This document shows positions 1,740-64,000 of a stretch of DNA of 64,000 nucleotides, in pieces. The notes under the pieces were generated by a model, which did no database searches, had not been told where the DNA came from, and worked only from the letters and a program-made list of their open reading frames with translations. The position numbers and the translations under genes are program-made. The DNA comes from Agarophyton chilense (Eukaryota > Rhodophyta > Florideophyceae > Gracilariales > Gracilariaceae): the NCBI GenBank assembly GCA_030374765.1, contig JARGXX010000088.1:1302001-1366000 (forward strand), given 5' to 3'. Each line of letters starts with the position of its first letter. The stretch's first letter is position 1.

Positions 1740-4700
1740 TCAAATAAAGTAATGCGTGTGCTTTCCAAATGTCGATCCTGTATTCCTCAAACGTGCATGC
1801 CCCCGGACGGCGTCCAAACCTTGAGAGCTTCCTCAGGTCTTCTTCAGGGGTCTCCTCAGGATTGAAGTTGTTACCTGATGTGGGAGCTACGGCGGACCAT
1901 CGTGTCGGGAGACATATGGAGAGGCGTTTTGGGAGGCGTTTTGGGAGGCGTTTTGGTATTATTCGGGCCAATGGGTGTCCCGTCCTGAAGGTTGCCATCC
2001 GTGCTGCCGATTTTGCGCCAATAGCGGGCGATAAAATTAGCCGGAATGGTTTGAGGCTTTTGCCTAGTTTCTTCCTCGGAAGAAGAGCTAAACCAATGGA
2101 AGCTATATCGCATAATCCCATCTTTTCTTCGACCGGCGGAGATGATTCGTTCAATAACGTATTTCTGTTGGTGTTCCTTCTCTCGAAGAAGAGTGTAGTC
2201 CAGAGAAGCGAATTCATCGGAGACGGTTGGGAGAGATGATTTATCGTCATTGGGCTTGACTAATGGGTCCATGAGGACAGTCGGGTACGCCGATATTGCC
2301 TTACGAGCTGTGGGGACCTGAGCCTCGATCTGAGGTCGTGGTGATTCCGTTGGGCCAAGAGGATGGGACTTTGTTGGTCCGGAGGAACTGGGAGCTCGTG
2401 TCACCCGATCAATAGACACGGTGTTCTGTAGGCCGTCAATTAGTATCGTAATTGTGTGGCGACTGGCCTTAAGGAATTTATATGGTCCCGTCGAGCGGGG
2501 AAGGAGTTTCCGCGTAGTATCCTCCAGGTCATCACTGGCTTTTGGTAGCCAATCCAGGTAACCAATTCTCCTTCCATAAAAATGTAAGTGTTTCAGACAG
2601 CTTTGTCAAAATTGACCTTGTAGCGCTGTTGGGCTTTGGTCAGTACATCTCTAGACGATTGGATAATGCTGTCGATGCGTCAGAGCGAGTAGCGCTTCGC
2701 CTGTGTAGGAGTCATTTCTTCGGTCAAACCCTGGGTTGTAATGGACTCCTGAAGTTCAACAGCTATCGGCGGTGGCGATCTAGTTAGCGTTAAATCAAAA
2801 GGGTTTTTCCCCGTAAAAGCGTGTACTTGCGTGTTATAGGCATAAAACAGTGGCTCAACGACGTCGTCCCAGTCCAATTTGTGCTCCGATACGTAGTGTA
2901 CCAATGGGTCCAGAAGGGTAGGGTTGAAGCGGTTTTTCCATTGGTTGGCGGGTGGTATGCCGTTGTGATTACATGTTTGATACCTAATGTAGCACACATG
3001 TGCGAAAAGAATGCCGTGGCGACATCCGTTACTGTTTTCTTTGTTAGGGCTAGGGCTCGGGTAAGTTTGGTAAACCTATCGGTTATTACCAAGACCAATC
3101 GGTTCCCATGGGACGATTTGGGCAAAGATCCAAGTATATCCATGGCGACGAATTTTATATGGCCTACGGCGGGGAAATGTTTCATTTTGGTCTAATGGTT
3201 GTCTCGAGACCTTAGCATTTTTGCGCGCGAAGAGCATTTCAGTGCAGTTCGCCATAGGTCTTGCGCCATAAATGGCCAGTAAAAGAACTTCCTTGAAATC
3301 TGGTACAATTTTCGGCCTCCAGGGTGACCAGCCAAGCGTGCGAAATGGCCAATGTATAAGAATGGCGCCCTTAGTGACCTTGGTACTATCCGTTGGATTG
3401 CACCATCCAGTGGTGAGCGGCGACACAATAGTCCGAATCGGTCGTAGTCGAATATGCATACAAGAGTTCCTACTAATTGGGCCGTTTGCTTGCAGTACTC
3501 ATTTGCCACCTGCACCTGTAGGAGCTCCTTAATAGTTATAGGGAGGAGCTCTTTTTCTTCTGGGGTTATTGCATTAACTTGAGATGGTGTCGAAACGGGT
3601 GGTACTGTGTCCCAGTCCAATAGGTATACTTCATTCTCCCTTATCTCAGGATAATCCACTTTGACCGCACCCATAAGGTAATTCGTTTCCGTATTATCCT
3701 GGGGTCCATCATCTGTGAAGGGAGTAGGAATGAGGTCGTACAAATGGCGTTGCATCAGTTCCGTTGGTCATGATTCCCGAGAGGGCATCTGCTGCCTGGT
3801 GCTTGATGGCCTATAGGTTATTTCGTAGTCATATTTAGACAGCCTGAGGTGTCACTGAGCGAGGCGACTTGATGAATTGCTCATATTTAGTAACCAGCTG
3901 AGTGAATCGTGGTCTGTCCTAATGGTTAACGTAGTTCCCTCGAGGTATGGACGGAGTGTCATTACGGACCATTCGATGGCTAGGCATTCCTTTTCGGTAG
4001 TACTGTAGTTTCGCTCCGCGCTGGTCAGCGTTTTGCTCCAGTATCCAATAGGTCGATAGTCCTTCTGTCACTCCTGTTCCTGTAGCAGTGCACATCCCAT
4101 TTGGGCATCAGAGGCGTCTGTATCCAGGACAACGGGCCTATTGGGTTTTGGTAACGCCAATATAGGTGGGTTCAGCTATTTGTCGTTTAGGGTCTGAATG
4201 CCTCGTACTGGTGGTCGGTAGGGGCCTCAAACTCCAAAGGTGTTCTTTTCTTCAGCATTGCGTTGAGAGGGGCCGAGATTTTAGAAAACCCTTGGACGAA
4301 ACGTCTATAAACATTGCACAAGCCCACAAAGGATCTTAGTTTCGTCTGGGTCCAGGGAAGTTTATCCTGTGGGATTGAATTAGTGGTCCGTGTGGCTACT
4401 TTTAGCTTTCCCGGGAGGACGACGTGACCAAGATAGTCCACCTAGGCCTGGAAGAAGGCACATTTGCGCAGCTACAGTTTTACTCTGGCGTCCTGTAGGA
4501 TTGTTAGTACCGTCTTCACATGGCGAAAGTGTTCCTTCACGGTACGTGAGAAGATGGTGACGTCGTCTAAATAGACCAAGGCGAACTACCATTTGACTTT
4601 TGACAGTTTGATGTCCATTACCCGTTGGAAGGTTGCTGGTGCATTCTTTAAACAAAAGGGCATACGAGTAAATCTGAACAGACCTTCATGGGTGGTGAAT

Positions 4701-11361: not shown

Positions 11362-13490
11362 ATGTCATCATCTATAGATCCCCGTCGTGTAGTGGGAAAC
11401 AGAGTACACACCCGCGCACGTCTCATCACATTAGAGAGCGACTGTAAACTCTTCTTTGGCATGCAATGGAAGGCGAAACTGGTCAGCGGAAGTGTTACAA
11501 AAGTGGACGTTGTTGTCAAAAACAATCGGAGACACACTTTTGTCACGATAATCTTCGAGCTACCTGGTCGTGAGGAAGTTTGCAGTTTCAAACTTTGAAA
11601 TTTAAAAGCCGGCGATCATGTTACAGTTAATGACACTGCTCAAGAAGTTATCAATTCGAACGTGGAGATTAATGGTGCTGCTATTACTAATGAAGTTTCG
11701 AACAATGAAGAGCAGCCTACTGTCACGGATGCTGATCACTGTCACACAATGAATCCGTTGCGCCCTCCTACTGTGACAAACAGTGACATACAAGACAGCT
11801 TTGTGGAAGTTCATTCGACGAAATGGACAACCGAAAATGTATCCTTGAATCTGAATGGTCCAGTGCAAATGCATCAATGGAAAGTCACGGGACCTGTTGG
11901 AGATTTTATCTCCGGCATCCATACACCTTAGGGACTCTCCCCATACGATTTCTTCATGTGGATGTTTACTGTAGCTCATTTGGAAACAATAGTTCGATCT
12001 ACCAACTCTCGGCTGGAAGAAAAAGGCTTAAAGCAGACTACAGGATGGGAAATTTTGAAGTTTTTTGGTTTGATGGTGTTATTGACACGCTTTGAGTTTT
12101 CAAATAGAAGATCGCTTTGGTCTAAAGACACTTTTTCTAAATATATCGAATCTCCGCAGCTCGGAAAGATCATGTCACGAAATTGGTTTAAACATATACG
12201 GCAATTCATCGTTTTCAGTGGCTCTGAAAACGATCAAAAATCAGAAAAATGCAGATGGTCATGCGTTTCTAAGTTGGTGAAAGCTCTAAATGACCATCGG
12301 AAAGCGTTTGTAAATCCGTCACACGCTTTTTGCGTGGACGAAAATGTGTCACGTTGGTATGGACTTGGAGGGAACTGGATGGAAAAAGGACTTCCACACT
12401 AAACTGATCTTCATAGGAAACCTGAAAATGGTTGTGAATTAAAGTCAGTGTGTTGTGGAAGGAGTAGAATTATTCTCAAAATAGAAATCACCATGGGAGC
12501 TACGCAACCAGACGTACAGCCTTTTGAATCAGAACATGCGAATGGAACAGCTGTTTTAATGAGACTTGTTGAAATTAGGTTCGCAACTGATCGAAGCGTT
12601 TATGCCGATTCATATTTTGCAGCCGTTGAAACAGCTGGAGAACTTTTAAAAAGAGGAATGCGATTTATTGGGGTTATAAAAACAGCCACCAGAAGGTTTC
12701 CTATGAAACATCTTCCCGAACTTACGATGACGGCACGAGGCCAGCACATGTCAATGGTCTCGAAACTGCCTGAATAGGATCGAAAGATGATGTCTGTGCT
12801 CTGAGTGGACCGAGCGAAGAGATATTTCATCAGCACTTGAAGGAGTACCCAACCAGGAACTCCCATTTCTCGTGAAAGATGGAGGACAACTGATGGAATA
12901 ACAACGCAAATTCCGCTTTCCATTTCTATTCCAGAGGTTTGTGAGGAGTACCATTCTTTTTGTTCAAGAATTGATAGGCCTAATAGGTCACGTCAAGATA
13001 ATCTGAATACGGAAAAGAATCTTGAAGTGAAAGAATTGTCTTTTAGAGTGAATAATTCTTTGCTGGCAATGTGCGTGGTTGATGCTTGGAATCTTTACAA
13101 GGGGGAATACGGAGACACATTGAATCTTACACCGCATAATTTCTGTTGTAATCTCGCAGACGGATTTATAGATAACAACTGAGATGCTATTCGAAATATG
13201 AAAGGAAAATGTAAAGAGGAAGATGAAGTAGAAAACCCATACATGGCTTGTACCGGCATTCATTTAATGGATACCAATAGCAAAAGAAGAAAATTGGATG
13301 GTTTTTTGACGTCTCAAACATATCAAGGACGATGCAAAGTCTGCAAGACCACTCACAAATCCAAATTTGTTTGTTCAGAATGAAAAAAGTACAATAATAT
13401 AAATGTTTATATTTGCTACAGCGGAACCAGTCGAGAGTGTTTTATAGATCATCTGCGTGATATTCATCACATTTCGAGCAACAAATAGTC
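11362..13490 (+). pseudogene. PiggyBac-type (DDE_Tnp_1_7) transposase pseudogene
   Basis: The frame starting MSSSIDPRRVVGNRV shows the features of PGBD4/PiggyBac-like transposases. These are the helical block LKFFGLMVLLTRFEF followed by LWSKDTFSKYI (~12.05-12.16 kb), a VDENVSRWYG motif with the first catalytic Asp (~12.33 kb), VYADSYFAAVETAGELL with a later catalytic Asp (~12.6 kb), and GMRFIGVIKTATRRFPM. It ends in a Cys-rich zinc ribbon (GRCKVCKTTHKSKFVCS, ~13.33-13.38 kb). The reading frame is the same from start to zinc ribbon, but in-frame stops occur at 11596, 11929, 12400, 12775, 12802, 12838, 13180 and 13381. The length (~700 codons) is normal for the family. I could not define terminal inverted repeats or the expected TTAA target duplication. 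Confidence 0.85.
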
Positions 13491-17405: not shown

Positions 17406-17414
17406 ACCAACCCC
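17406..17414. repeat. Left 9-bp target-site duplication of the MULE
   Basis: ACCAACCCC sits immediately before the left terminus GGCAAAAGGCC and is repeated exactly at 23941-23949 right after the other terminus. Nine bases is the classical Mutator duplication length. Confidence 0.9.
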
Positions 17415-17702
17415 GGCAAAAGGCCAAAATACACGACGTCTGGTATGTATGAAATAGACTAGATTTAGACCAATTAAAATTCTGGCTGCATTTCAGATAC
17501 CGTACAATGCACCGTGGCCCCCTACTCGGAGTGCGCTCTCTGAGCTCGCATGGCGCTGTTTGCGCATATGCGTATCAGGCCAATCATACATCGTCCACAT
17601 CGTCCCACATCGTCCTCGCTCTCTCCTCGTCCAATGTGCAAGCCGGCCGCAACTCGAACTCCTTCTCCCCAAATCACCTCGCGCCAAGTCCTCGCCATGT
17701 AG
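17415..17702 (+). repeat. MULE left terminal inverted repeat
   Basis: This 288-bp segment matches the reverse complement of 23670-23940 across its whole length at roughly 96-97 percent. The main difference is a 17-bp stretch after CCCCCTACTC (near 17527) that is present here and absent on the right. Such long TIRs usually carry transposase-binding sites and the promoter. Confidence 0.93.
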
Positions 17703-17905
17703 ATGACGTCCACTTTCCAGCCATATTTCAAAACTTTTGGCGCTATTTTGGCGCTCAATAAACTGAGCTCACTGTGCCGCTCAATATTGTAATCCCCATC
17801 ACCCCAATCCGTATCGTATCGAACGAACTGAATCCTCTCATTCCTTGTTACCCGTTTCATATCGATTCTACACTACAAAAACTCTTTCTCTTCCTAAACA
17901 AATGC

Positions 17906-19645
17906 ATGATAAAAAAAGGTAAGATATCGAAAACAGGCTGTTTCTGAACCTTTTATTTTAACCGTTCTAACATTTTCATTTTCTGTGAAATAGAAGATGT
18001 TCTTGAACTGTTTTGTATAAGTCATGGAAAAGAAGGTGTTTCTAAAATATGTATTGAGTTTTACAAGAACCTGGAAAAGTATGGTAGTCTACAGTTAACA
18101 TCGTCCAAGCTGCGGTTTTTAGTTGTCCACCGACACGTCTATGACATTGTCGAAGCAGAGAAACGTGAAACAAGTCCTGTGTCCTTTGTTAATAGTTCGA
18201 GCAAGACTGCCTACCTGTGCAGTGATCTTATCACTTCTGCTCTGATGGACATGGAGCCCAAACCAGGAGTTTGTATCTGTCCCTGTGACACAAGCACATC
18301 TCTGACAGGCTATGCAAACAGGATAGAGACAGGACGGATGAATTCCAAAGACATTGTAGAACTGATACTGAAGCCGCTATCTAAATCGCTCTCAAGGAAT
18401 GCTACGGGCACAAACTGTGCCATTCACATTGTAGTAGTCCCTTTGAAGCTCTCAAATCAGCATTGGGGGGTTCTCGTAGGACAGAAGTCGCCTGGAAGTA
18501 GGTAGAAGAAAAGGAAAAAGCCTACAGTTTTCTTCGGAGACAGTTTACGCTGGAAATTCCCAGAGCAAGTTTTACTTCTATTCAAGCGAGCGTTTGAATA
18601 TACTATTCTGAATGGCGAGGTTTCTGCAGTTCTGTCGAAGAAGAACTTTATGCTTGACATAAAACAGTACCCTCTGCAGAAAGATGGACATAGCTGTGGG
18701 TGTTATGTGATATCCGCAGCGGCTGAATTTGCTGCGGATCGAGGGTTTGCGCCAGGTCGAAGTTTTGCGCACGGCTTCAGCCCTGCTTTATCTGAGCGTT
18801 ATAGGTGGATGGCCATCAGAAGCCGTATAGTTCACATTCTTATGGCCTACGAGTTCTACGAAGGAAAAGAAGTTTCCGAGACTATGCTGCAGGACTACCG
18901 CTTAAATCACCGTCGTCATATCTATCGAACTGGAGAGAAGGGAAAGTTCCGCTTGAAGAAGATCCGCAGCCCGGTTAGGGAACGAGGTGATATGATTCTG
19001 ACGAAGAGAAAGGCGACTGAATCTCCCTCACAAGCTGTATCAGCGATATATTCAGACAGCGCCGCAGCTACTCTCCAGGGACGCGATCATCATGAAGATG
19101 TAGACAACGTAGCGAAGAAGGAGGGGATGAAAAAACCGTCCGACATCGATATTATGTTGCGCAGGCAAGACGATGAGCAACTCAAGGACTTGATTGTGCG
19201 GATGATTGAGGGAAATGAGAAGGAGCGGTCGTCGCAATGTCAGCGAGACATTAAGGAACAGGTTCGGAGCAAGATTGACGTCTCCAATTCATGCTTGTCT
19301 CCCCTCCTGCGAAGGAGGTCTACTCGAATAGTGAAGTTTCTGGATAGTTCTGACGTTTTTCATTCAATTATGGATCAAGTCCTTGATGAAGTGATTGACA
19401 GAACATCTGCTCGCAGCCTACACTCTCTGGACGCTTCCCCAATTGTGCATTCCGTAGTTGATAATGTTACTGATCAGGCCGTAGTCGTCTCTGTTCAAAG
19501 GTCTTTGAACGAAAACGATAACCGAGATGAGGAGATGGCTCTTTCAGTGGCATCAAGAGTGGGAGAGAAACCTTTTAGTGGTCCCGGACTGAAATTCGTA
19601 TGCGAGGTAGACGACATGAGTGCTTTCATGTGCTCGACAGCATAA
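17906..19645 (+). pseudogene. MULE Ulp1/SENP-like (C48) cysteine protease region
   Basis: The frame carries the Ulp1 catalytic signature. It has His in NQHWGVLV (~18.46 kb), Asp in VFFGDSL (~18.53 kb), and a Gln/Cys region QKDGHSCGCYVISAAAEF (~18.68-18.72 kb). In cells this family removes SUMO or related modifiers. In MULEs its role is unknown. A TAG at 18503-18505 lies in frame between the His and Asp motifs, and a TAA at 19643-19645 ends the frame. Downstream of the protease (18.9-19.6 kb) is a charged Ser/Lys/Glu linker. The best start is the ATG at 17906, which requires removing the putative intron 17919-17993; without it the first exon falls out of frame. Upstream in-frame sequence from 17994 is well-formed coding sequence, supporting this model. 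Confidence 0.7.
17919..17993 (+). other. Putative 75-nt spliceosomal intron in the MULE
   Basis: It starts GTAAGAT and ends GAAATAG, with TTCTAAC about 25 bases before the 3' end as a plausible branch site. Removing it joins an ATG-initiated mini-exon (17906-17918) in frame to the long coding frame from 17994, giving a start for an otherwise ATG-less frame. The call is by consensus only. Confidence 0.45.
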
Positions 19646-20911
19646 ATGCATGGGTTCTTGTATGCCATGCACCATTTTCGATTGATAAGAAGGAAAATGA
19701 GGCAGAGCGATCGTCTCTTTACTGGGAGACTTCGTTGTGCCAAGAGCAAAGCACCCACTCGGTGTCCTTCGACCCTTAACTTCAGCCTGGGATGTAAAAG
19801 TCTGAAATGGTACGTTTCTGCAGATCTACGACACAACCACACACCCCTCAAGGTAGCTGATGAGGTAATTAAGGAGCATTGTCAAGCTCTTCAGAGCTCA
19901 TTGAGAGCTCGCTATCAGATTTGGAAGGAGGAGCTTTCTAGAGGCGCGAGCAGGAGAGCAATAGATTGGGAAGCGTTAGAACAAAAACTGTTTACAAAGA
20001 AAGAAGATGATGAACTGTTTACCAAGAAAGAAGATGATTTTATGTCCGACATTCTGGGTTGCGAGGTAATGGGAGACGTTTTCAGGAGAAGCCCGCCAAT
20101 TGCGGCGAAACTTAAAGTCAAGCCTTTCACGTCCCCAACGCCAAATAGAACGACGAACAACCATTCTCTTCGCCGCGCTGACCAGTTTCACACTCCTGAA
20201 GAGAAGCTCGAGTATAGTACTTCGTGCCAGCGTGTAGGAGACATGAATGGGAAACAGAACAGGTTTCCACAACCTGAGGTAGAAGACGTCATTGACTTGT
20301 TGTCTTTAGGAAACGACGTAGGAGACGTGACTGGTAATGAATTAAGAGGCGTAAATGGTAATGACGTAGGAAACGTGAGTGGTCTAGCAGCCCCACTGTT
20401 TGGAACAGGAGCCCCGGGGATACCGAGCCCGGACAGGGAACCCAAGAACTACTCCAAACATAGCATTGAGTATGTACACACTTCTTCCTACTCTTCTACT
20501 TCAAACTATCAGTGTAGTACAAGGGCAACACCCAACAGCATGCTTGGATCCGCTGTAGACGAGGTAATGGAGAGCAGGAATGGTACGGAAGGGATACATG
20601 ATGAGATTGGACTGGATGATAGAACTTCAGAACTGATCGATCGATTTCTGTTTTTAGATGACGAGGAAGAGATTCCTTTAGATATTTTCCACGTAGAAGA
20701 ATCTCTCAACGACGATGACGACACTGATTGTGATGATGAAGTAGAAGTGCATGTCAAGGATGGACAAGAAGAAAAGATGGAGAAGGTTAGTATAGCTGAG
20801 AGTAAGACTGGCGAGGTGGAAGACGACAAGGAGCATATTGAAGAATGCTTTAAGTCGGCGGTCATTGCTTACTTTCAAAGCCTTTCTTTTGATGCCCCGG
20901 CCACGATGTAA
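19646..20911 (+). CDS. MULE middle ORF: zinc module plus acidic linker
   Basis: This is a 421-codon frame in the same phase as the protease region, starting directly after its TAA. The N-terminal ~75 residues carry a FAR1/FLYWCH/WRKY-GCM1-like DNA-binding module: basic residues, then LRCAKSKAPTRCP, then W-Y-V and HNHTPLK, giving a C-x5-C...HxH zinc set. The module seems to begin before the TAA (FVCEVDDM, ~19.6 kb), so the stop probably interrupts it and this may not be an independent gene. Residues ~110-130 hold a duplicated KKEDDxLFTKKEDDF block. Residues ~215-250 hold a repeated GNDVGxV pattern. The C-terminal third is very acidic. The last base overlaps the next ATG (TAATG), with a change of frame. 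Confidence 0.6.
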   Translation: MHGFLYAMHHFRLIRRKMRQSDRLFTGRLRCAKSKAPTRCPSTLNFSLGCKSLKWYVSADLRHNHTPLKVADEVIKEHCQALQSSLRARYQIWKEELSRGASRRAIDWEALEQKLFTKKEDDELFTKKEDDFMSDILGCEVMGDVFRRSPPIAAKLKVKPFTSPTPNRTTNNHSLRRADQFHTPEEKLEYSTSCQRVGDMNGKQNRFPQPEVEDVIDLLSLGNDVGDVTGNELRGVNGNDVGNVSGLAAPLFGTGAPGIPSPDREPKNYSKHSIEYVHTSSYSSTSNYQCSTRATPNSMLGSAVDEVMESRNGTEGIHDEIGLDDRTSELIDRFLFLDDEEEIPLDIFHVEESLNDDDDTDCDDEVEVHVKDGQEEKMEKVSIAESKTGEVEDDKEHIEECFKSAVIAYFQSLSFDAPATM

Positions 20912-22335
20912 TGAAAGAAGTGCAGCACATCGCCGATTGTATGGGATACTATCTCTATACGAGGACATCGATCTACATAGGCGACAGGAAGCGAACTGAA
21001 GCAAATGGAGTGGCTGGAGACCGTCGTGTGCTACAAAAGGGTCTCCTAAAGTGCGAGAAGTACAACTCGAAGCAGCCTGGGCGATGCAATTTTTCTCTTA
21101 CTATTAAAACAGTCGGTTCGGACGAAGACGGAGGCAATAAATCCTACGTTGCGGACTTCACAGGGGCTAGACACAATCATAAACCTGAAGAAAGCTGTGG
21201 GGTCAAGAGTCTGGCCCCGAAGATGCGCTCTGAAGCGCTTCACATGACCAACACTCTGAGAATGTCCTTCCAAGATACCTTGAGATACTTGGAGGACAAG
21301 TATAAGAAAGTAATCAATCCGATAGCGGCTCGAAAGCAGCTAGGGTACGCTGGATCGCTAAGCAATCCAAAGGATTTGGAATGCATGAGACTTTGTGGAG
21401 CACTCGTTTCCCTCAACAAAGAACACCCTGGTAACAAGTTCTTTTTCAACTGCGATAGCTCTGGAAGAATGATGTCGGCGTGTTGGACTTTGAAGGAGTG
21501 GCTTAATGACTACGAGGACTACGGAATTGTGCCAGGCATCTCGGTGGATTGTAAGGCTGTGGCAAATCGGTTTGGATATCCGTTGTTTACAATCAATGGG
21601 AGGTCAAATGATGGGTTCACGCTAACGTTATTCATGGGTTTCATTGCCGGAGAGAGGGAAGAGGATTTCGTTCAGGTACTTTCGCGTTTCAAGTCCATTA
21701 TCCTGTTCTCTTCGGCAATGATAACTATGGACCAGAGCGTCCCATGTATTAACGCGACGGAGAAGGTCTTTGATACATCTTTCATATCGCTTGACGAGTG
21801 GCATCTAAATCAAAACCAGATGAAGAACGTCACTTCGTGGTGTGGAAAGATTGGAGGGAGCACATGGTGTGATGTTATGTCCCGAGACCTCTTCAACTTG
21901 AGAAGGTCGAGAAGTATATCCAGTTTTGTGTGTAGAAGAGAAGCGTTCGAACGACAATACTTTTACGGTTTCCGACGCAACCCTCCGCTTTGGTTCAAGT
22001 ACCTCTACCACTCCAAACCGCACATGTTAGTGGTCTGTTTCAGAGATGCAGCAGTACCGAAGAGGTATCTTTTTCAGGGTACAGGCTACACGGAGGCATC
22101 TAACTCTGGCTACCGAGCATACATTCTGTCGAAGAAGGTGCCTTTCTCTAAGATCCCTTATGAAATGCTTCGACTGACAAGAAAAAGGAGAGTTGAAAGG
22201 CGATCCTCACACCTCAGATCCCTTACTCCGCTCAGCTCGCGTCATAGATCAATCCGAGACACACAACTCCCTATTCCCCCCAGTTCTGAACTATATGATC
22301 AACGAGTACACCAGTTACGCGCTCTTGAAGTTTAA
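20911..22335 (+). CDS. MULE transposase (MuDRA-like) core ORF
   Basis: This is 474 codons. Residues ~1-95 form a second C/HNH zinc module (LLKCEKYNSKQPGRCNF, then FTGARHNHKPE). Residues ~200-330 match the MULE transposase catalytic region: GISVDCKAVANRFGYPL contains the first catalytic Asp, INGRSNDGFTLTLFMGFIAGEREEDF follows, and ITMDQSVPCINATEKVF holds the second Asp. The usual C-x2-H motif near the third acidic residue reads DEWHLNQNQ, so the Cys is replaced by Asp. It catalyses cut-and-paste movement by binding the TIRs. The frame ends at 22335, but recognisable protein continues in another frame, so the C-terminus is frameshifted. The ATG overlaps the previous stop by one base. Confidence 0.8.
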   Translation: MKEVQHIADCMGYYLYTRTSIYIGDRKRTEANGVAGDRRVLQKGLLKCEKYNSKQPGRCNFSLTIKTVGSDEDGGNKSYVADFTGARHNHKPEESCGVKSLAPKMRSEALHMTNTLRMSFQDTLRYLEDKYKKVINPIAARKQLGYAGSLSNPKDLECMRLCGALVSLNKEHPGNKFFFNCDSSGRMMSACWTLKEWLNDYEDYGIVPGISVDCKAVANRFGYPLFTINGRSNDGFTLTLFMGFIAGEREEDFVQVLSRFKSIILFSSAMITMDQSVPCINATEKVFDTSFISLDEWHLNQNQMKNVTSWCGKIGGSTWCDVMSRDLFNLRRSRSISSFVCRREAFERQYFYGFRRNPPLWFKYLYHSKPHMLVVCFRDAAVPKRYLFQGTGYTEASNSGYRAYILSKKVPFSKIPYEMLRLTRKRRVERRSSHLRSLTPLSSRHRSIRDTQLPIPPSSELYDQRVHQLRALEV

Positions 22336-23418
22336 AGAGCTCAGTATAGTTCCGTCGAAGTCCTACGCAGTTCTAAGCGCAACATTAGTAGACATCGAAG
22401 CTGTGGAATGGCGTGAGGTGGTACAAGATGGGAGCTATGTTGGCCCTGTGGCGAAGTTCGAGTTAAGGTGGAGAAAAGAGTATGCCGCAGCGTCCAACCT
22501 TTTCCGCAACCAAATCCGCCATCATCTTTACATTCCTTTGCGAATTCATCGCCAGTACTACCCATCACTGTGCTTTTCGCTTGCAGAGTAAGTGGCAGTG
22601 GCACAGAAGCGAAGAGAAACCTGGAAGTGCGCTGCAGCTGTAGAAACAGCATCACGATGGGTTTCCCATGGCGTCATGTATTTCGGTGCGCGATGGTGTA
22701 TGGGGAGGAGGTTCTACGTCAGCCGCGGTTTAAGGTAGTACTCTCGGAGTACATTGCAATCGACAAATTGTTTGATACGTAGTGGAAGAGAAACTTCGAG
22801 GAGTGGAACATTTCGAGAGTGTCCAATATTCGTCAAACTGCCGGTGTGATTGATGCAGATGCGTTAAAGTCGAAGCTCTTGCCCATTGATGGGGAGGAAG
22901 ACAACAATGCAGAGATTAGTGATCTGGTAACCGGAAATTCGGATGTAGAGCTTCAGAACTACGGCCGTTATTCAGATGGAAAGGCCATGTACGACCATAT
23001 ACATCGCTTGGCTTCGGGCATGGGTAATGTTGCAATTCAAAGAGTACATAGGCTTCTCGAAACAGTGAAGAAAATGCTTCCCGATGGTTCTATTCCTTCA
23101 CTGTTTCTAATAACCAATTATGAACATGAGAGTCTAACCATTTCGGCGGGGACCAACCACTTCGATTCCTCATCGGTTGATCAAATCGACTTATCCAAAA
23201 TCCTACCACCAATCTCTTCATCTGTTAGGACTTCAAAACGAAAGAAGAGCTTCACTGAGAGATTTACTACCAAAAAGCAACGACATGGTGCTCCAAAGTC
23301 CTACCCTACTGCCGTTTATGGCTCTCAATCTCAAACCATGAGTCTACCGTCCCAATCTGAGATACACAACGCGCAAACCAAAGCAATAGAAATCATTGAA
23401 AGTGTACATCGTAAGTAA
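22283..23418 (+). pseudogene. MULE transposase C-terminal region with SWIM-like motif
   Basis: After the transposase frame is lost, sequence from about 22.28 kb continues in other frames (INEYTSYALLKFKEL, then a region to ~22.78 kb). A SWIM-like zinc motif appears as VRCSCRNS...GFPWRHVF (~22.63-22.68 kb). The usual third Cys before Arg-His is Trp here. A final ~200-codon frame (from 22819, no ATG) is hydrophilic and ends RTSKRKKSF...KKQRHG, a nuclear-localisation-like basic tail, stopping at 23418. This is the expected position for a MULE C-terminus. At least two frame changes and one stop (22780) break it. Confidence 0.6.
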
Positions 23419-23669
23419 AATAGATATAAAAGCAAACCTTCAATATTATGAGTATTAACACTTACAAATTGCCTAACATTTGCTTTCTCTGCGACGTGAT
23501 ACGGCGGCAGAGCGAACTTCACTTCTCGCACAAGACGTGCGTTAAAATGATGTTGAACGAAGAACTGAACCTGGGAGGGACGGATGACTGCTCCACCATC
23601 TAGTCGCACGACTACTTCTCAGCTTCAACGACCCTTTCTTAGGTTCAAATGTCGCGCCATTTTTCTTAG

Positions 23670-23940
23670 CTACATGGCGAGGACTTGCCGCGAGGTGATT
23701 TGGGGAGAAGGAGTTCTAGTTGCGGCCGGCTTGCGCATTGGACGAGGAGAGAGCGAGGACGATGTCGGACGATGTGGACGATGTGTGATTGGCCTGATAC
23801 GCATATGCGCAAAGAGCGCCATGCGATGAGTAGGGGGCCACGGTGCATTATACGGTATCTGAAATGCGGCCAGAATTTTAATTGGTCTAAATCTAGTCTA
23901 TTTCATACATACCAGACGTCGTGTATTTTGGCCTTTTGCC
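23670..23940 (-). repeat. MULE right terminal inverted repeat
   Basis: This 271-bp segment is the inverted partner of 17415-17702 and ends GGCCTTTTGCC at the element boundary. Confidence 0.93.
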
Positions 23941-23949
23941 ACCAACCCC
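23941..23949. repeat. Right 9-bp target-site duplication of the MULE
   Basis: ACCAACCCC is identical to the left copy at 17406-17414. Confidence 0.9.
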
Positions 23950-23979
23950 CGCCGACGGGCTCCGGGGGTCTCGGTCATA

Positions 23980-25277
23980 AAGTCTGTTTCAAAATCATAT
24001 CCCTCGCGCAAATTTTCCAAAAATCGACGTTTTATCTACAGTAAAACTAACAAAATCAGTGTAAAAAAATATGCAAGTAAAAAAACTGTTTCAAAATCAT
24101 AACCTTTATGGCATCCTTTTTATTCCAACACGAGTTCAGTAGTTTAGTTTTGCTCCTCTAGCCTGTATAACACTTATAAAACGCTTTGGCATTGATTCTA
24201 TAAAAGAATTGATAGAATTACAGTCAATTTTTTCCCAGCAATCTTTGATACAATTTTTTAGATCAAAAACTGTATCAAATTGCCTTCCTTGCCCATAAAC
24301 CATTCGGGCCAACAGTCCTCAAATGTTTTCGATAGGGTTGAGGTCAGGAAAGCGCGCAGGCCATTCAATAACCGACATATTTAGACTATTGAACCACTAT
24401 TTCATAGAATTAGACTTATGCACAGGTGAATTATCTTGCTGAAAAATGAATTTTTCTCCGTGCATACAGTATGAAAAAGGTAAAAGATAGTTTTCTAGAA
24501 CCTCAGCATACTTCTCAGAGTTCATTGTAGTTTCAACAAAAGCCATATCAGTTGCTCCTTTCGTGGATATTCCAGCCCAAACCATTACTGATGCGCCTTC
24601 TGAATGCCTCATCACAAATTCCTTCTTTTCTTTTCGTAGATCATGCCAATAAAATTTATAGCAATCTGGACCATCAAGGTTAAACTTTTTTTCGTCGGAA
24701 AAGATAACATTATTCCATCCCGTTTTCCAAAACACCTTTTGAGCACACAATTCAACTCGATTTTTCTTGTGATTATCTTTTAAAAAAAAGTCTTCCTCAT
24801 TTTTGTGTACTTGAACAAGTTTTGACGGTTGACTTTAAGTCATATTGTAGATCTTGATAAAGGCAAATTTAGATTTTTGACAATTTTTCCGCAAGATAAA
24901 GTGTTGTGGCATAGTTCTCGCTTAATTCCATGCTTATCGGCCCGGGATAGTGCCGTAGGACGGCCGGTTAACGCTTTGTTCCGTATTTAGCAGGGTTTTT
25001 GATGAAGTTGCTGATTGTTTTTGGGTTGCGCTTGAGTTTTTGGGCTATATCTGCTGGAATCATACTCTGACCTACTAATTCCATGATTTTCAGCTGGTCA
25101 GAGCGTGTCAGAGGTGCGCCACGAGCCATAATTGAGCGAATGATTGTATAAAGGATATACTTTTGAAACAGTGTTATTGACTTAGTGGTTTTTATTTGTT
25201 GCGAAATGTGCTCTACAGTACGTGAAATGCCTTTTTGGCGCAGTTTTTGTAAAGGGATATATTTTTGAAACGCACTG
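23980..25277 (-). mobile_element. Tc1/mariner element with IR/DR ends
   Basis: This is a 1,298-bp element flanked by TA dinucleotides (23978-23979 and 25278-25279), as expected for Tc1/mariner. The ends are imperfect inverted repeats with a TTTCAAAA(T/A)ATATCCCT-type core. Each end carries an outer and an inner copy of the core about 105 bp apart (outer 23980-24013 and 25244-25277; inner ~24086-24110 and ~25147-25173), the IR/DR layout known from Tc1-like elements such as Sleeping Beauty. The length is typical. The transposase runs on the minus strand and is inactive. Confidence 0.9.
24136..25129 (-). pseudogene. Tc1-like DD34E transposase pseudogene
   Basis: From the ATG at 25129 the frame begins MARGAPLTRSDQLK, followed by a helix-turn-helix (IPADIAQKLKRNPKTISNFI). 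The middle shows VIFSDEKKFNLDGPD with the first catalytic Asp, then SVMVWAGIS. FIFQQDNSPVHKS carries the second Asp, and FPDLNPIEN carries the catalytic Glu exactly 34 residues later, which makes it DD34E (Tc1 clade). Total length (~330 codons) is normal. Stops interrupt it: TAA about 50 codons in, several more between ~24.76 and 24.95 kb, TAG just after the second Asp region, and TGA directly after PIENI. A protein cannot be made, so any past mobility of this copy depended on another source. Confidence 0.88.
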
Positions 25278-25303
25278 TAGTTCTTCTAAGTCACACTCAT
25301 TTC

Positions 25304-57836: not shown

Positions 57837-58330
57837 GTAGCTGCGGCGGCGGAGAAGCGGCAGTGGCAGCGGAAAAGCTTGTCGGCGGGGTCGGAGAAGC
57901 GGCAGCGGCTACAGCGGCGGTGGTGACAGCGGCTACAACGGCGGCGGCGGCGACGGCGACGACTACGGCGGCGACGACAGCGGCGGCGACGACGCGCCGT
58001 GTATCGTGGAGCGCAGCGATGCGCCTTACGGCGACGAAGATTTGTCGATACGAAGCGGCCGCAGGGGGCGCGACAGGCGCGGGGGACTCGTGGCACCTCG
58101 GTGGTGACAAACGCTCAACGCGGCGCAGCACACGGAGCGTGGCGCGTGGACGTCACACGTGGCACCACGGTGCGTGTCGGTGAGTCGACGCCAACACACG
58201 CCGGATACATTGTGCCCCAATTACATTGCGCGTCGTGCAATTGGCGCCCCGGCGCGCAGAGGCTCGTGCGTGGCGCACGCACCTTTCACTGCCCGCCCTT
58301 GTGGAGGTGAGGCGTCTGCTTGCGCTTCCG
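57837..58330. promoter_or_regulatory. GC-rich divergent promoter with GGC/CGGCGA repeats
   Basis: About 490 bp separate two divergent ATGs. The left half is a degenerate GGCGGC/GGCGACGAC trinucleotide repeat (~57840-58000), which makes long but meaningless Ala/Arg frames on both strands. It probably holds both promoters; no TATA box is seen. Confidence 0.4.
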
Positions 58331-59305
58331 ATGCGCTCCGCGTCTTCCCCGCCGCCGCCGCCGCCGCCGCGCCCCATGCTGTCTTTCGCGCCGGCGCTTC
58401 GCCTGCCGCTCCCGTCCCACGCAGCCACATGGCGCTCGTCACCTCTCGCATCCACCACCACCATGCGCTGCGGCATCGCCTCAATCGCCACCACCGTCGG
58501 CGCCGTGCTCACCTTGTGCACCGCCAGCGCCCACGCCCACGCCCTCACTGCTCCCGCACCCCCGCCGTCCATCGCCGCTTCCGCCGCCCAACTCTCCAGT
58601 CCCACCTCCGCCAAACCATGGTCCTCTGCGCGCAATCTCCCCCCCATCGCCCTCACCGCTCCCCCTTCCATCACCTCGCCGCCGCACCCGCGCCCCGCCC
58701 ACCACCATTCCATCCCGCAAAAGGCCGCAAACTTTCTGCGCTCGCACGGCTTGAACGATAAGCTCGTCGTGTTGCTCATCTCCGCCCTGCCCGTCGTAGA
58801 GCTCCGCGGCGCCATTCCAGTAGGTTTTCTTCTCGGTCTCCCCGCGCTACACACTTTTTTGCTGGCTGTGCTGGGAAACATGTTGCCCATCATTCCCTTG
58901 TTGGGTCTCTTGCGCCTGCATCTGGTCCAGCGCGTCGCCGCCACTGTGCTGCAAAGAGCCAGGAGAAAAGCCGAGTCCATTGCCAATTCCACATCGCAAG
59001 CCACTGCGCTTGCTCTTTTCGTCGCCGTTCCGCTCCCCGGCACTGGCGCCTGGACCGGTTGTTTCGTCGCCTTTGTGCTTGGTATGCGCTTTCGAACTGC
59101 GTTTGCCTCCCTTTTTGTGGGCGTTCTTTCAGCCGCCGTCATTGTCACCGCTCTCTGCTCCATGGGCACCGTGGGCGGCGGTATTGCTGCTTTGCTTCTC
59201 TTGATCACCGGGCTCCTTTCGCTTTTCAACACCTTTCGCCGTCCATCTACTTCTGCTGACGACCTACCTCGCCTAAATGGTCCTGCCAATCAAACTTCTG
59301 AATGA
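58331..59305 (+). CDS. Sm_multidrug_ex (COG2426) membrane protein, plastid-targeted
   Basis: The frame opens at a TTG (58226), but the first ATG at 58331 gives 324 residues. The first ~130 residues are Ser/Ala/Pro/His-rich with few acidic residues, resembling a plastid transit peptide. The conserved domain (~135-290) reads VVLLISALPVVELRGAIPVGFLLGLP, AVLGNMLPIIPLL, RRKAESIANSTSQATALALFVAVPLPGTGAWTGCFVAFVLG and FVGVLSAAVIVTALCSMGT. Both the ELRGAIP and PLPGTGAWTG signatures of the family are present. About four membrane helices are expected. The family is named putative small multi-drug export protein in bacteria; in algae and plants it is plastid-located with unclear function. A truncated, frameshifted copy lies at 63.36-64.0 kb. 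Confidence 0.85.
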   Translation: MRSASSPPPPPPPRPMLSFAPALRLPLPSHAATWRSSPLASTTTMRCGIASIATTVGAVLTLCTASAHAHALTAPAPPPSIAASAAQLSSPTSAKPWSSARNLPPIALTAPPSITSPPHPRPAHHHSIPQKAANFLRSHGLNDKLVVLLISALPVVELRGAIPVGFLLGLPALHTFLLAVLGNMLPIIPLLGLLRLHLVQRVAATVLQRARRKAESIANSTSQATALALFVAVPLPGTGAWTGCFVAFVLGMRFRTAFASLFVGVLSAAVIVTALCSMGTVGGGIAALLLLITGLLSLFNTFRRPSTSADDLPRLNGPANQTSE

Positions 59306-63358: not shown

Positions 63359-63361
63359 CCG

Positions 63362-64000
63362 TCGCTGCTTCCGCCGCCCAACTCTCCAGTCACACCTCCG
63401 CCAAACTATGGTCGTCTGTGCGCAAACTCCCCCCCATCGCCCTCACCGCTTCCCCGTCCATTACCTCGCCGTCGCACCCGCGCCTCGCCCACCGTTCCAT
63501 CCCGCAAAAGGCCACAAACTTTCTGCACTCGCACGGATTGCACCATAAGCTCATCGTGTTGCTCATCTCCGCCCTGCCCGTCGTAGAGCTCCGCAGCGCC
63601 ATTCCAGTAGGATTTCTTCTCGGCCTCCCCGCGCTGCACACCTTTTTTGCTGGCTGTGCTGGGGAACATGTCGCCCATCATTCCCTTGTTGTGCCTCTTG
63701 CGCCTGCATCTGGTCCAGTGCGTCGCCGCCACTGTGCTGCAAAGAGCCAGCAGAAAAACCGAGTCCACTGCCAATTCTGCATCGCAAGCCAATACGCTTG
63801 CGCTTTTCGTCGCCGTTCCGCTCCCCGGCACTGGCCCATGGACCGGTTGTATCGTCGCCTTTGTGCTTGGTATGCGCTTTCGAACTGCGTTTGACTCCCT
63901 TTTTGTGGGCGTTCTGTCAGCTGTCGTCATTGTCACCTCTGTCTCTGCTCCTTGGGAACCGTGGGAGGCGCTTTTGCTGCTTCGCTGCGCTTGAACTCCG
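63362..64000 (+). pseudogene. Partial duplicate of the Sm_multidrug_ex gene
   Basis: From about 63362 the sequence parallels 58573-59210 at roughly nine bases in ten, same orientation, up to or near the window end. Conserved protein blocks remain (IVLLISALPVVELRSAIPVG, LFVAVPLPGTGPWTGCIVAFVLG), with Arg-Gly of the ELRGAIP signature now Arg-Ser. An extra C at ~63641-63642, before a run of six T, shifts the frame between these blocks, and the transit-peptide region and start are absent. It is a truncated non-functional copy; the original at 58331 is intact. Confidence 0.88.

What the first reader, a model, noticed from the sequence alone, without database searches (positions are those of the whole stretch)
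17406..23949. MULE with readable TIRs, 9-bp target duplication and a Ulp1 protease
Both ends, the 288/271-bp inverted repeats and the perfect ACCAACCCC duplication can be read directly. The element combines a SUMO-protease-like domain with a MULE transposase on one strand. Ulp1-bearing MULEs are known from land plants; a copy in what looks like a red alga would extend or question that distribution. The nearly identical TIRs imply recent movement, so an active relative may exist in the genome.
Basis: partly seen in the sequence, partly recalled or inferred. Interest (0 to 1): 0.78.

Follow-up and report, generated by a model that had tools for sequence, protein, structure and literature searches.

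The report
Decayed Mutator-like transposon with Ulp1-like domain
This is a complete but internally broken jumping-gene copy of the Mutator type that also carries the remains of a probable SUMO-protease domain, a combination already known from plants and some animals, so it is a useful new example and not a new kind of element.

Summary
A 6,526-bp element (17415-23940) is bounded by 288/271-bp inverted repeats (9 mismatches in 271 aligned positions, one 17-bp gap) and a perfect 9-bp duplication, ACCAACCCC. A MULE transposase domain lies on the + strand (PF10551, E 2.7e-5, slightly below Pfam's cut-off). The Ulp1 label is likely but weak: PF02902 at E 0.044, below cut-off, with a stop read through; longer queries miss it. 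In its favour: both PDB matches are C48 proteases, though weak, His, Asp, Gln and Cys are in order, and 0 of 9 shuffles match.

This copy is probably not autonomous. TIR identity does not date a class II insertion. Ulp1-bearing Mutator elements are printed for hydra and lancelet as well as plants, and red-algal MULEs with long TIRs and 9-bp duplications are tabulated. The host was not verified as a red alga; no genome was held to seek copies or an empty site.

The parts
17406..17414 (.). left copy of the 9-bp target-site duplication ACCAACCCC
   Evidence: read directly; identical to 23941-23949
17415..17702 (+). left terminal inverted repeat, 288 bp, with three copies of ACATCGTCC
   Evidence: alignment to the right TIR: 9 mismatches in 271 aligned positions, one 17-bp gap; 8-mer counts
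17906..17918 (+). possible first coding exon (ATG)
   Evidence: in frame with the long open frame if the candidate intron 17919-17993 is spliced; inferred
17919..17993 (+). candidate spliceosomal intron, 75 nt (AG|GTAAGA, CTAAC, TAG|)
   Evidence: pattern scan: two such patterns in the element; 35 of 500 first-order Markov sequences had two or more, and three further matches lie elsewhere in the window (both strands), so modest support
17994..18850 (+). region with the Ulp1-like (peptidase C48) domain; His codon 18461, Asp 18539, Gln 18677, Cys 18695; in-frame TAG at 18503
   Evidence: PF02902 E 0.044, 14.0 bits against cut-off 20.7, for 18401-18850 with TAG read as Gln; both PDB matches are C48 proteases, E 0.26 and 0.45; residue positions
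18851..20908 (+). long linker region, same frame, with in-frame TAA at 19643 and a first C-C-HxH zinc-finger-like segment within 19646-19846
   Evidence: open frame; similarity of the two finger-like segments; no Pfam match
20911..22190 (+). MULE transposase: second zinc-finger-like segment (about 20911-21200), core with Asp codons 21547 and 21730 and a WH motif at 21799
   Evidence: PF10551 E 2.7e-5, 24.9 bits against cut-off 27.6, residues 219-302 of the ORF; motif positions, assigned by eye; the first Asp lies just outside the Pfam match
22193..23410 (+). broken C-terminal part: probable frame change near 22.2 kb, uncertain one near 22.55 kb, SWIM-like CxC...(W)RH from 22633, in-frame TAG at 22780, then an open frame to 23410
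   Evidence: translations and frame scores; the scores are near zero between about 22.5 and 22.75 kb; SWIM by eye, no Pfam match
23411..23510 (+). candidate 3'-terminal intron, 100 nt (GTAAGT, CTAAC, CAG|)
   Evidence: pattern scan; its branch region is a listed direct repeat of that of the first candidate intron (family D8)
23670..23940 (-). right terminal inverted repeat, 271 bp
23941..23949 (.). right copy of the 9-bp target-site duplication

Best explanation
A full-length, decayed copy of a Mutator-like (MULE) cut-and-paste DNA transposon. In the ancestral element a DDE transposase with zinc-finger DNA-binding segments would bind the long TIRs, excise the element and insert it through a 9-bp staggered cut, leaving ACCAACCCC on both sides (shown: TIRs and TSD; inferred from the family: the biochemistry). 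The ancestral product was probably one long protein, Ulp1-like protease domain first, then linker, two zinc-finger-like segments, transposase and SWIM-like end (inferred from one shared frame up to about 20.9 kb). The Ulp1-like domain most likely removed SUMO or a related modifier, perhaps from transposase, repair or silencing factors (inference). In this copy the gene is interrupted by stops and frame changes, so it could now move only if an intact relative supplies transposase.
For: TIRs and perfect 9-bp TSD. PF10551 at E 2.7e-5, the only family matched by that ORF at E up to 1. C48 residues in order, Gln to Cys 6 residues; PF02902 E 0.044, 0 of 9 shuffles matching that family; the only two PDB matches at E up to 10 are chains named Xanthomonas outer protein D (recalled as a C48 SUMO protease), whole-sequence E 0.26 and 0.45, with His, Asp, Gln and Cys aligned. 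Stops and frame changes, while matches to Pescadillo, Vps41 and Cox11, ERO1 and glycosyltransferase 41 in the same window are long open frames, which argues against sequencing error. The five minus-strand ORFs of 100 aa or more inside the element show no transposon or protease family; one has a match to a DUF at E 0.11, below cut-off.
Against: Both domain matches are below Pfam's curated cut-offs. Read-throughs longer than 18401-18850 did not match PF02902 at E up to 10 (17948-19642) nor any PDB chain at E up to 1 (17948-19060); the best Pfam match of the Ulp1-linker ORF is an unrelated Gag family at E 0.039-0.12, below cut-off, in the linker. The PDB matches have per-domain E of 4.2 and 7.7. 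The transposase ORF has no PDB relative (one unrelated match at E 2.1). NCBIfam gave nothing for two proteins. Single-sequence AlphaFold models were uninformative (mean pLDDT 34.9 and 33.6). No relative was confirmed in viral or GTDB contigs or phage records, which are the wrong place for a eukaryotic element. The frame scores were trained partly on the element itself and are near zero or favour the minus strand at several points.
Confidence: 0.85

Rival explanations
1. The element is intact and autonomous: the apparent stops and frame changes lie in introns.
For: Two candidate introns with good splice and branch signals exist, at 17919-17993 and 23411-23510. GTAAG sites at 20802 and 22588 lie near two of the frame changes. 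A 30-nt GT...AG stretch spans the 18503 stop (read by eye).
Against: The GTAAG...CTAAC...YAG pattern finds only the two introns named and covers none of 18503, 19643, 20.9 kb, 22.2 kb, 22.55 kb or 22780; introns without that pattern were not excluded. The SWIM-like motif has Trp where a Cys is expected (motif recalled).
Confidence: 0.1
2. The Ulp1-like segment is not a C48 protease but an unrelated region with a chance motif.
For: PF02902 at E 0.044 is below cut-off and the longer queries miss it; an unrelated family scores E 0.065 on the same piece.
Against: All four catalytic residues align in order in both PDB matches; 0 of 9 shuffles match PF02902; Ulp1 domains are a recurrent companion of MULE transposases.
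Confidence: 0.15
3. Two separate genes: a Ulp1-like gene ending at TAA 19643 and a transposase gene starting at ATG 19646.
For: TAA is followed at once by ATG; in KI-MULEs the Ulp1 gene is one of three genes, and in grapevine ULP lies apart from the transposase ORF. The similarity between the two finger segments was not shown to extend across the stop.
Against: The same frame runs on across the stop with no space between, and the second frame is itself interrupted near 20.9 kb. A promoter there was not tested.
Confidence: 0.2

Closest known systems
Ulp1-bearing Mutator elements of hydra, lancelet and plants (list in PMC2836005, passages read)
   Same: Mutator transposon and a Ulp1 (C48) domain within one element
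Ulp1-containing TIR-MULEs and Jittery-like MULEs of melon and grapevine (PMC2528002, passages read)
   Same: TIR element, ULP sequence found in either orientation relative to the transposase
   Different: In grapevine the ULP sequence lies downstream of the transposase ORF; [quoted passage not shown]
Kaonashi (KI) MULEs / KIU-carrying Vandals of Arabidopsis (passages)
   Same: Ulp1-like domain in a MULE
   Different: KI-MULEs are non-TIR and carry the ULP gene in reverse orientation to mudrA; here long TIRs and same strand
Rhodophyte MULE groups 36 (Jittery sub-group MULE-Cc) and 38 (MULE-Cc) (PMC6446971 table, passages read)
   Same: 9-bp TSD (group 38), long TIRs of 192-640 bp, SWIM finger, one ORF; group 36 has 'various inserts, potentially host derived'
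   Different: No Ulp1 is noted there; no phylogeny could be made here

Membership tests
Mutator-like element (MULE) | 8-11 bp, usually 9-bp, target-site duplication | tested here: met
   perfect 9-bp ACCAACCCC on both sides; chance 3.8e-6; range from the table
Mutator-like element (MULE) | long terminal inverted repeats (in TIR-MULEs) | tested here: met
   288/271 bp, 9 mismatches in 271 aligned, one 17-bp gap
Mutator-like element (MULE) | MULE-type transposase domain | tested here: met
   PF10551 E 2.7e-5, 24.9 bits, but below the curated cut-off of 27.6
Mutator-like element (MULE) | SWIM or other zinc finger | tested here: inconclusive
   SWIM-like CxC...RH by eye at 22633 with one ligand changed to Trp; no Pfam match for fingers; two C-C-HxH segments resemble each other, 0 of 2000 shuffles as good
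Ulp1 / peptidase C48 | C48 catalytic domain by profile | tested here: inconclusive
   PF02902 E 0.044, 14.0 bits against 20.7; longer queries no match
Ulp1 / peptidase C48 | His-Asp-Gln-Cys in order | tested here: met
   H 18461, D 18539, Q 18677, C 18695; spacing 26, 46, 6 residues, with one stop between H and D; aligned in both PDB matches
Kaonashi (KI) MULE | non-TIR element with ULP in reverse orientation to mudrA | tested here: not met
   long TIRs and same strand; definition from PMC2528002
Autonomous element | uninterrupted transposase reading frame | tested here: not met
   stops at 18503, 19643, 22780 and frame changes near 20.9 kb and, less certainly, 22.2 and 22.55 kb; splicing not tested
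Red-algal MULE group (MULE-Cc) | placement in the transposase tree | not testable with these tools
   no eukaryotic protein or genome collection; host not identified

The most novel reading that the evidence does not exclude
A MULE family, in an alga outside land plants and animals, whose transposase is fused at its N-terminus to a Ulp1-type protease through two zinc-finger segments: an independent capture of a SUMO protease that would show convergent recruitment of deSUMOylation by MULEs in a third major lineage.
Probability: 0.35. Interest if true: 0.45.

Novelty: new member of a known kind. Interest (0 to 1): 0.27.

Why it matters
If the host is confirmed as a red alga, it widens the known range of Ulp1-bearing MULEs and offers an independent case for asking why MULEs repeatedly carry a deSUMOylating domain. 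As a single broken copy it gives a family signature (TIR sequence, domain order) that can be searched in the host assembly.

Tried and rejected
Copies of the TIR elsewhere: none in the window beyond the two ends; no exact match of the 24-bp end in viral contigs. Relatives: no pattern match was confirmed for the transposase ORF (8 stretches in viral contigs; 37 in GTDB contigs) or for the Ulp1-linker ORF (3 in viral contigs); this method with one protein finds close relatives only. The transposase matched no phage record. Empty site: the joined flanks match nothing else in the window apart from themselves and weak matches inside the neighbouring Tc1/mariner-like region; no LTR copy of the left flank was found there. 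Structure prediction from single sequences gave models too poor to search, so no fold search was run. A frame-1 reading of the first finger region (about 19.6-19.7 kb) was considered because the frame score favours it there; I prefer frame 2 because it aligns with the second finger. A comparison begun upstream of the 19643 stop did not carry the similarity across it. NCBIfam gave nothing for two proteins. Rfam and tRNA scans of the window gave nothing. Two host ORFs were compared with PDB partly in the hope of placing the host; the listings name molecules, not organisms, and did not help.

Judged by title and start of abstract, no listed paper describes a Ulp1-bearing MULE in a red alga; three of the lists were capped at 20 (of 23, 863 and 197 papers). 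Passages of six papers were read (with 35, 56, 59), none in whole. Repbase was not available.

Full report
What is there. The window holds a 6,526-bp element at 17415-23940, flanked by ACCAACCCC at 17406-17414 and 23941-23949. The TIRs are 288 and 271 bp long; they differ at 9 of 271 aligned positions and by one 17-bp gap. The 21-bp end sequence occurs only at these two places in the window, and a 9-bp flanking match has a chance probability of 3.8e-6.

Coding content. The domains found are on the + strand. In a Pfam scan of nine ORFs from the region (seven in the element, two in neighbouring elements), the ORF 20911-22335 matches the MULE transposase domain PF10551 (E 2.7e-5, 24.9 bits, curated cut-off 27.6). 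Aspartates in transposase-like contexts lie at codons 21547 and 21730, with a WH motif at 21799 (assigned by eye and recall; the first lies just outside the Pfam match). The same ORF has no PDB relative; its one match at E up to 10 is unrelated, E 2.1. Five minus-strand ORFs of 100 aa or more inside the element match no transposon or protease family; one matches a DUF at E 0.11, below cut-off.

The Ulp1-like region is upstream of the transposase, in another frame. The two unmodified pieces on either side of the stop at 18503 match no protease family; the second matches an unrelated Gag family at E 0.039 and a DUF at E 0.18, both below cut-off. Read through that stop, the piece 18401-18850 matches PF02902 at E 0.044 (14.0 bits, cut-off 20.7) and an unrelated HTH family at E 0.065. 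The longer read-throughs miss it: 17948-19642 has no PF02902 match at E up to 10, and 17948-19060 has no PDB match at E up to 1. The only two PDB sequences matched by the shorter piece at E up to 10 are named Xanthomonas outer protein D (a C48 SUMO protease from recall), whole-sequence E 0.26 and 0.45, per-domain E 4.2 and 7.7, with His, Asp, Gln and Cys aligned. None of nine shuffles matches PF02902; one matches an unrelated family at E 0.25. I take the Ulp1 label as likely (about 0.85), not proven.

Two zinc-finger-like segments of the C-C-HxH kind precede the transposase core, one in each frame; they resemble each other (30 of 86 columns identical; 0 of 2000 shuffles as good). Pfam names neither at E up to 10. 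A SWIM-like motif starts at 22633 but has Trp in place of one expected ligand (motif recalled).

The gene is broken. In the Ulp1 and linker frame there are in-frame stops at 18503 and 19643 and two more at 20909 and 20912. The transposase is in another frame. A further change of frame is probable near 22.2 kb and another is possible near 22.55 kb, where frame scores are close to zero; a TAG lies at 22780. The scores were trained partly on the element and host ORFs of this window. Two candidate spliceosomal introns, 17919-17993 and 23411-23510, carry GTAAG, CTAAC and YAG signals, but 35 of 500 simulated sequences have two or more such patterns and three further matches lie elsewhere in the window, so they are plausible rather than shown. 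The first gives an ATG start in frame with the Ulp1 region. No internal stop is covered by such a pattern; GTAAG sites at 20802 and 22588 lie near two frame changes, so introns of another form are not excluded. ORFs of the same window that match Pescadillo, Vps41 and Cox11, ERO1 and glycosyltransferase 41 are long open frames, so sequencing error is an unlikely cause. The copy is most likely defective.

How it works. From the family, the transposase binds the TIRs, excises the element and inserts it with a 9-bp stagger. That is inferred; what the sequence shows is the outcome, TIRs and TSD. For the Ulp1 domain, PMC13317346 (passages) says that its precise function in KIU-carrying Vandal elements is unknown and that such elements lower methylation of related elements; PMC2836005 (passages) cites a suggested role in transposition and proposes a link with DNA repair. 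I think protection of the element from silencing, or help with repair, is the likeliest role, with low confidence.

Age. In class II elements both TIRs are inherited from the donor copy, so their divergence is not a clock (established knowledge, recalled). With the broken gene, what can be said is only that the perfect TSD has survived.

Context. The element sits in a nest of other mobile DNA: a transposase of the PF13843 family (piggyBac-like, label recalled) at 11932-12774, Copia-like pieces at about 14.1-17.1 kb (below-cut-off matches; RNase H end by eye) and a Tc1/mariner-like ORF at 24400-24834 (DDE_3, below cut-off).

Comparison with what is known. Ulp1-bearing Mutator elements are listed for hydra, lancelet, Arabidopsis, maize, rice and melon (PMC2836005, passages) and grapevine (PMC2528002, passages). 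In grapevine the ULP sequence is downstream of the transposase in either orientation; in KI-MULEs it is reversed and the elements lack TIRs. Here it is upstream and on the same strand. Red-algal MULEs with SWIM fingers, TIRs of 192-640 bp and, for one group, 9-bp TSDs are tabulated (PMC6446971, passages), with no Ulp1 noted. So both parts are known, and their combination in a red alga, if that is the host, would be a new member with a slightly different domain order. The host was not verified: no genome is held, and nothing run here places it.

Verdict. Observation confirmed; interpretation partly supported; a new member of a known kind, of modest interest.

Noticed in passing
58569-59204 and 63359-63994: A direct duplication of about 636 bp at 91% identity that overlaps a small multidrug-export family gene (PF06695, ORF 58226-59302); the second copy lies at the window's end.
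   Followed up: partly
11932-12774: Pieces of a PF13843 (piggyBac-like, label recalled) transposase in two adjacent ORFs separated by a stop.
   Followed up: partly
23974-25285: Tc1/mariner-like remnant (DDE_3 match below cut-off) with imperfect, partly repeated inverted ends, starting about 25 bp after the MULE's right duplication.
   Followed up: partly
3192-3755: Integrase zinc-binding domain (PF17921) on the minus strand, probably of another retroelement.
   Followed up: no
20309-20383: Short in-frame 24-bp-spaced repeat in the MULE linker (family D1).
   Followed up: no
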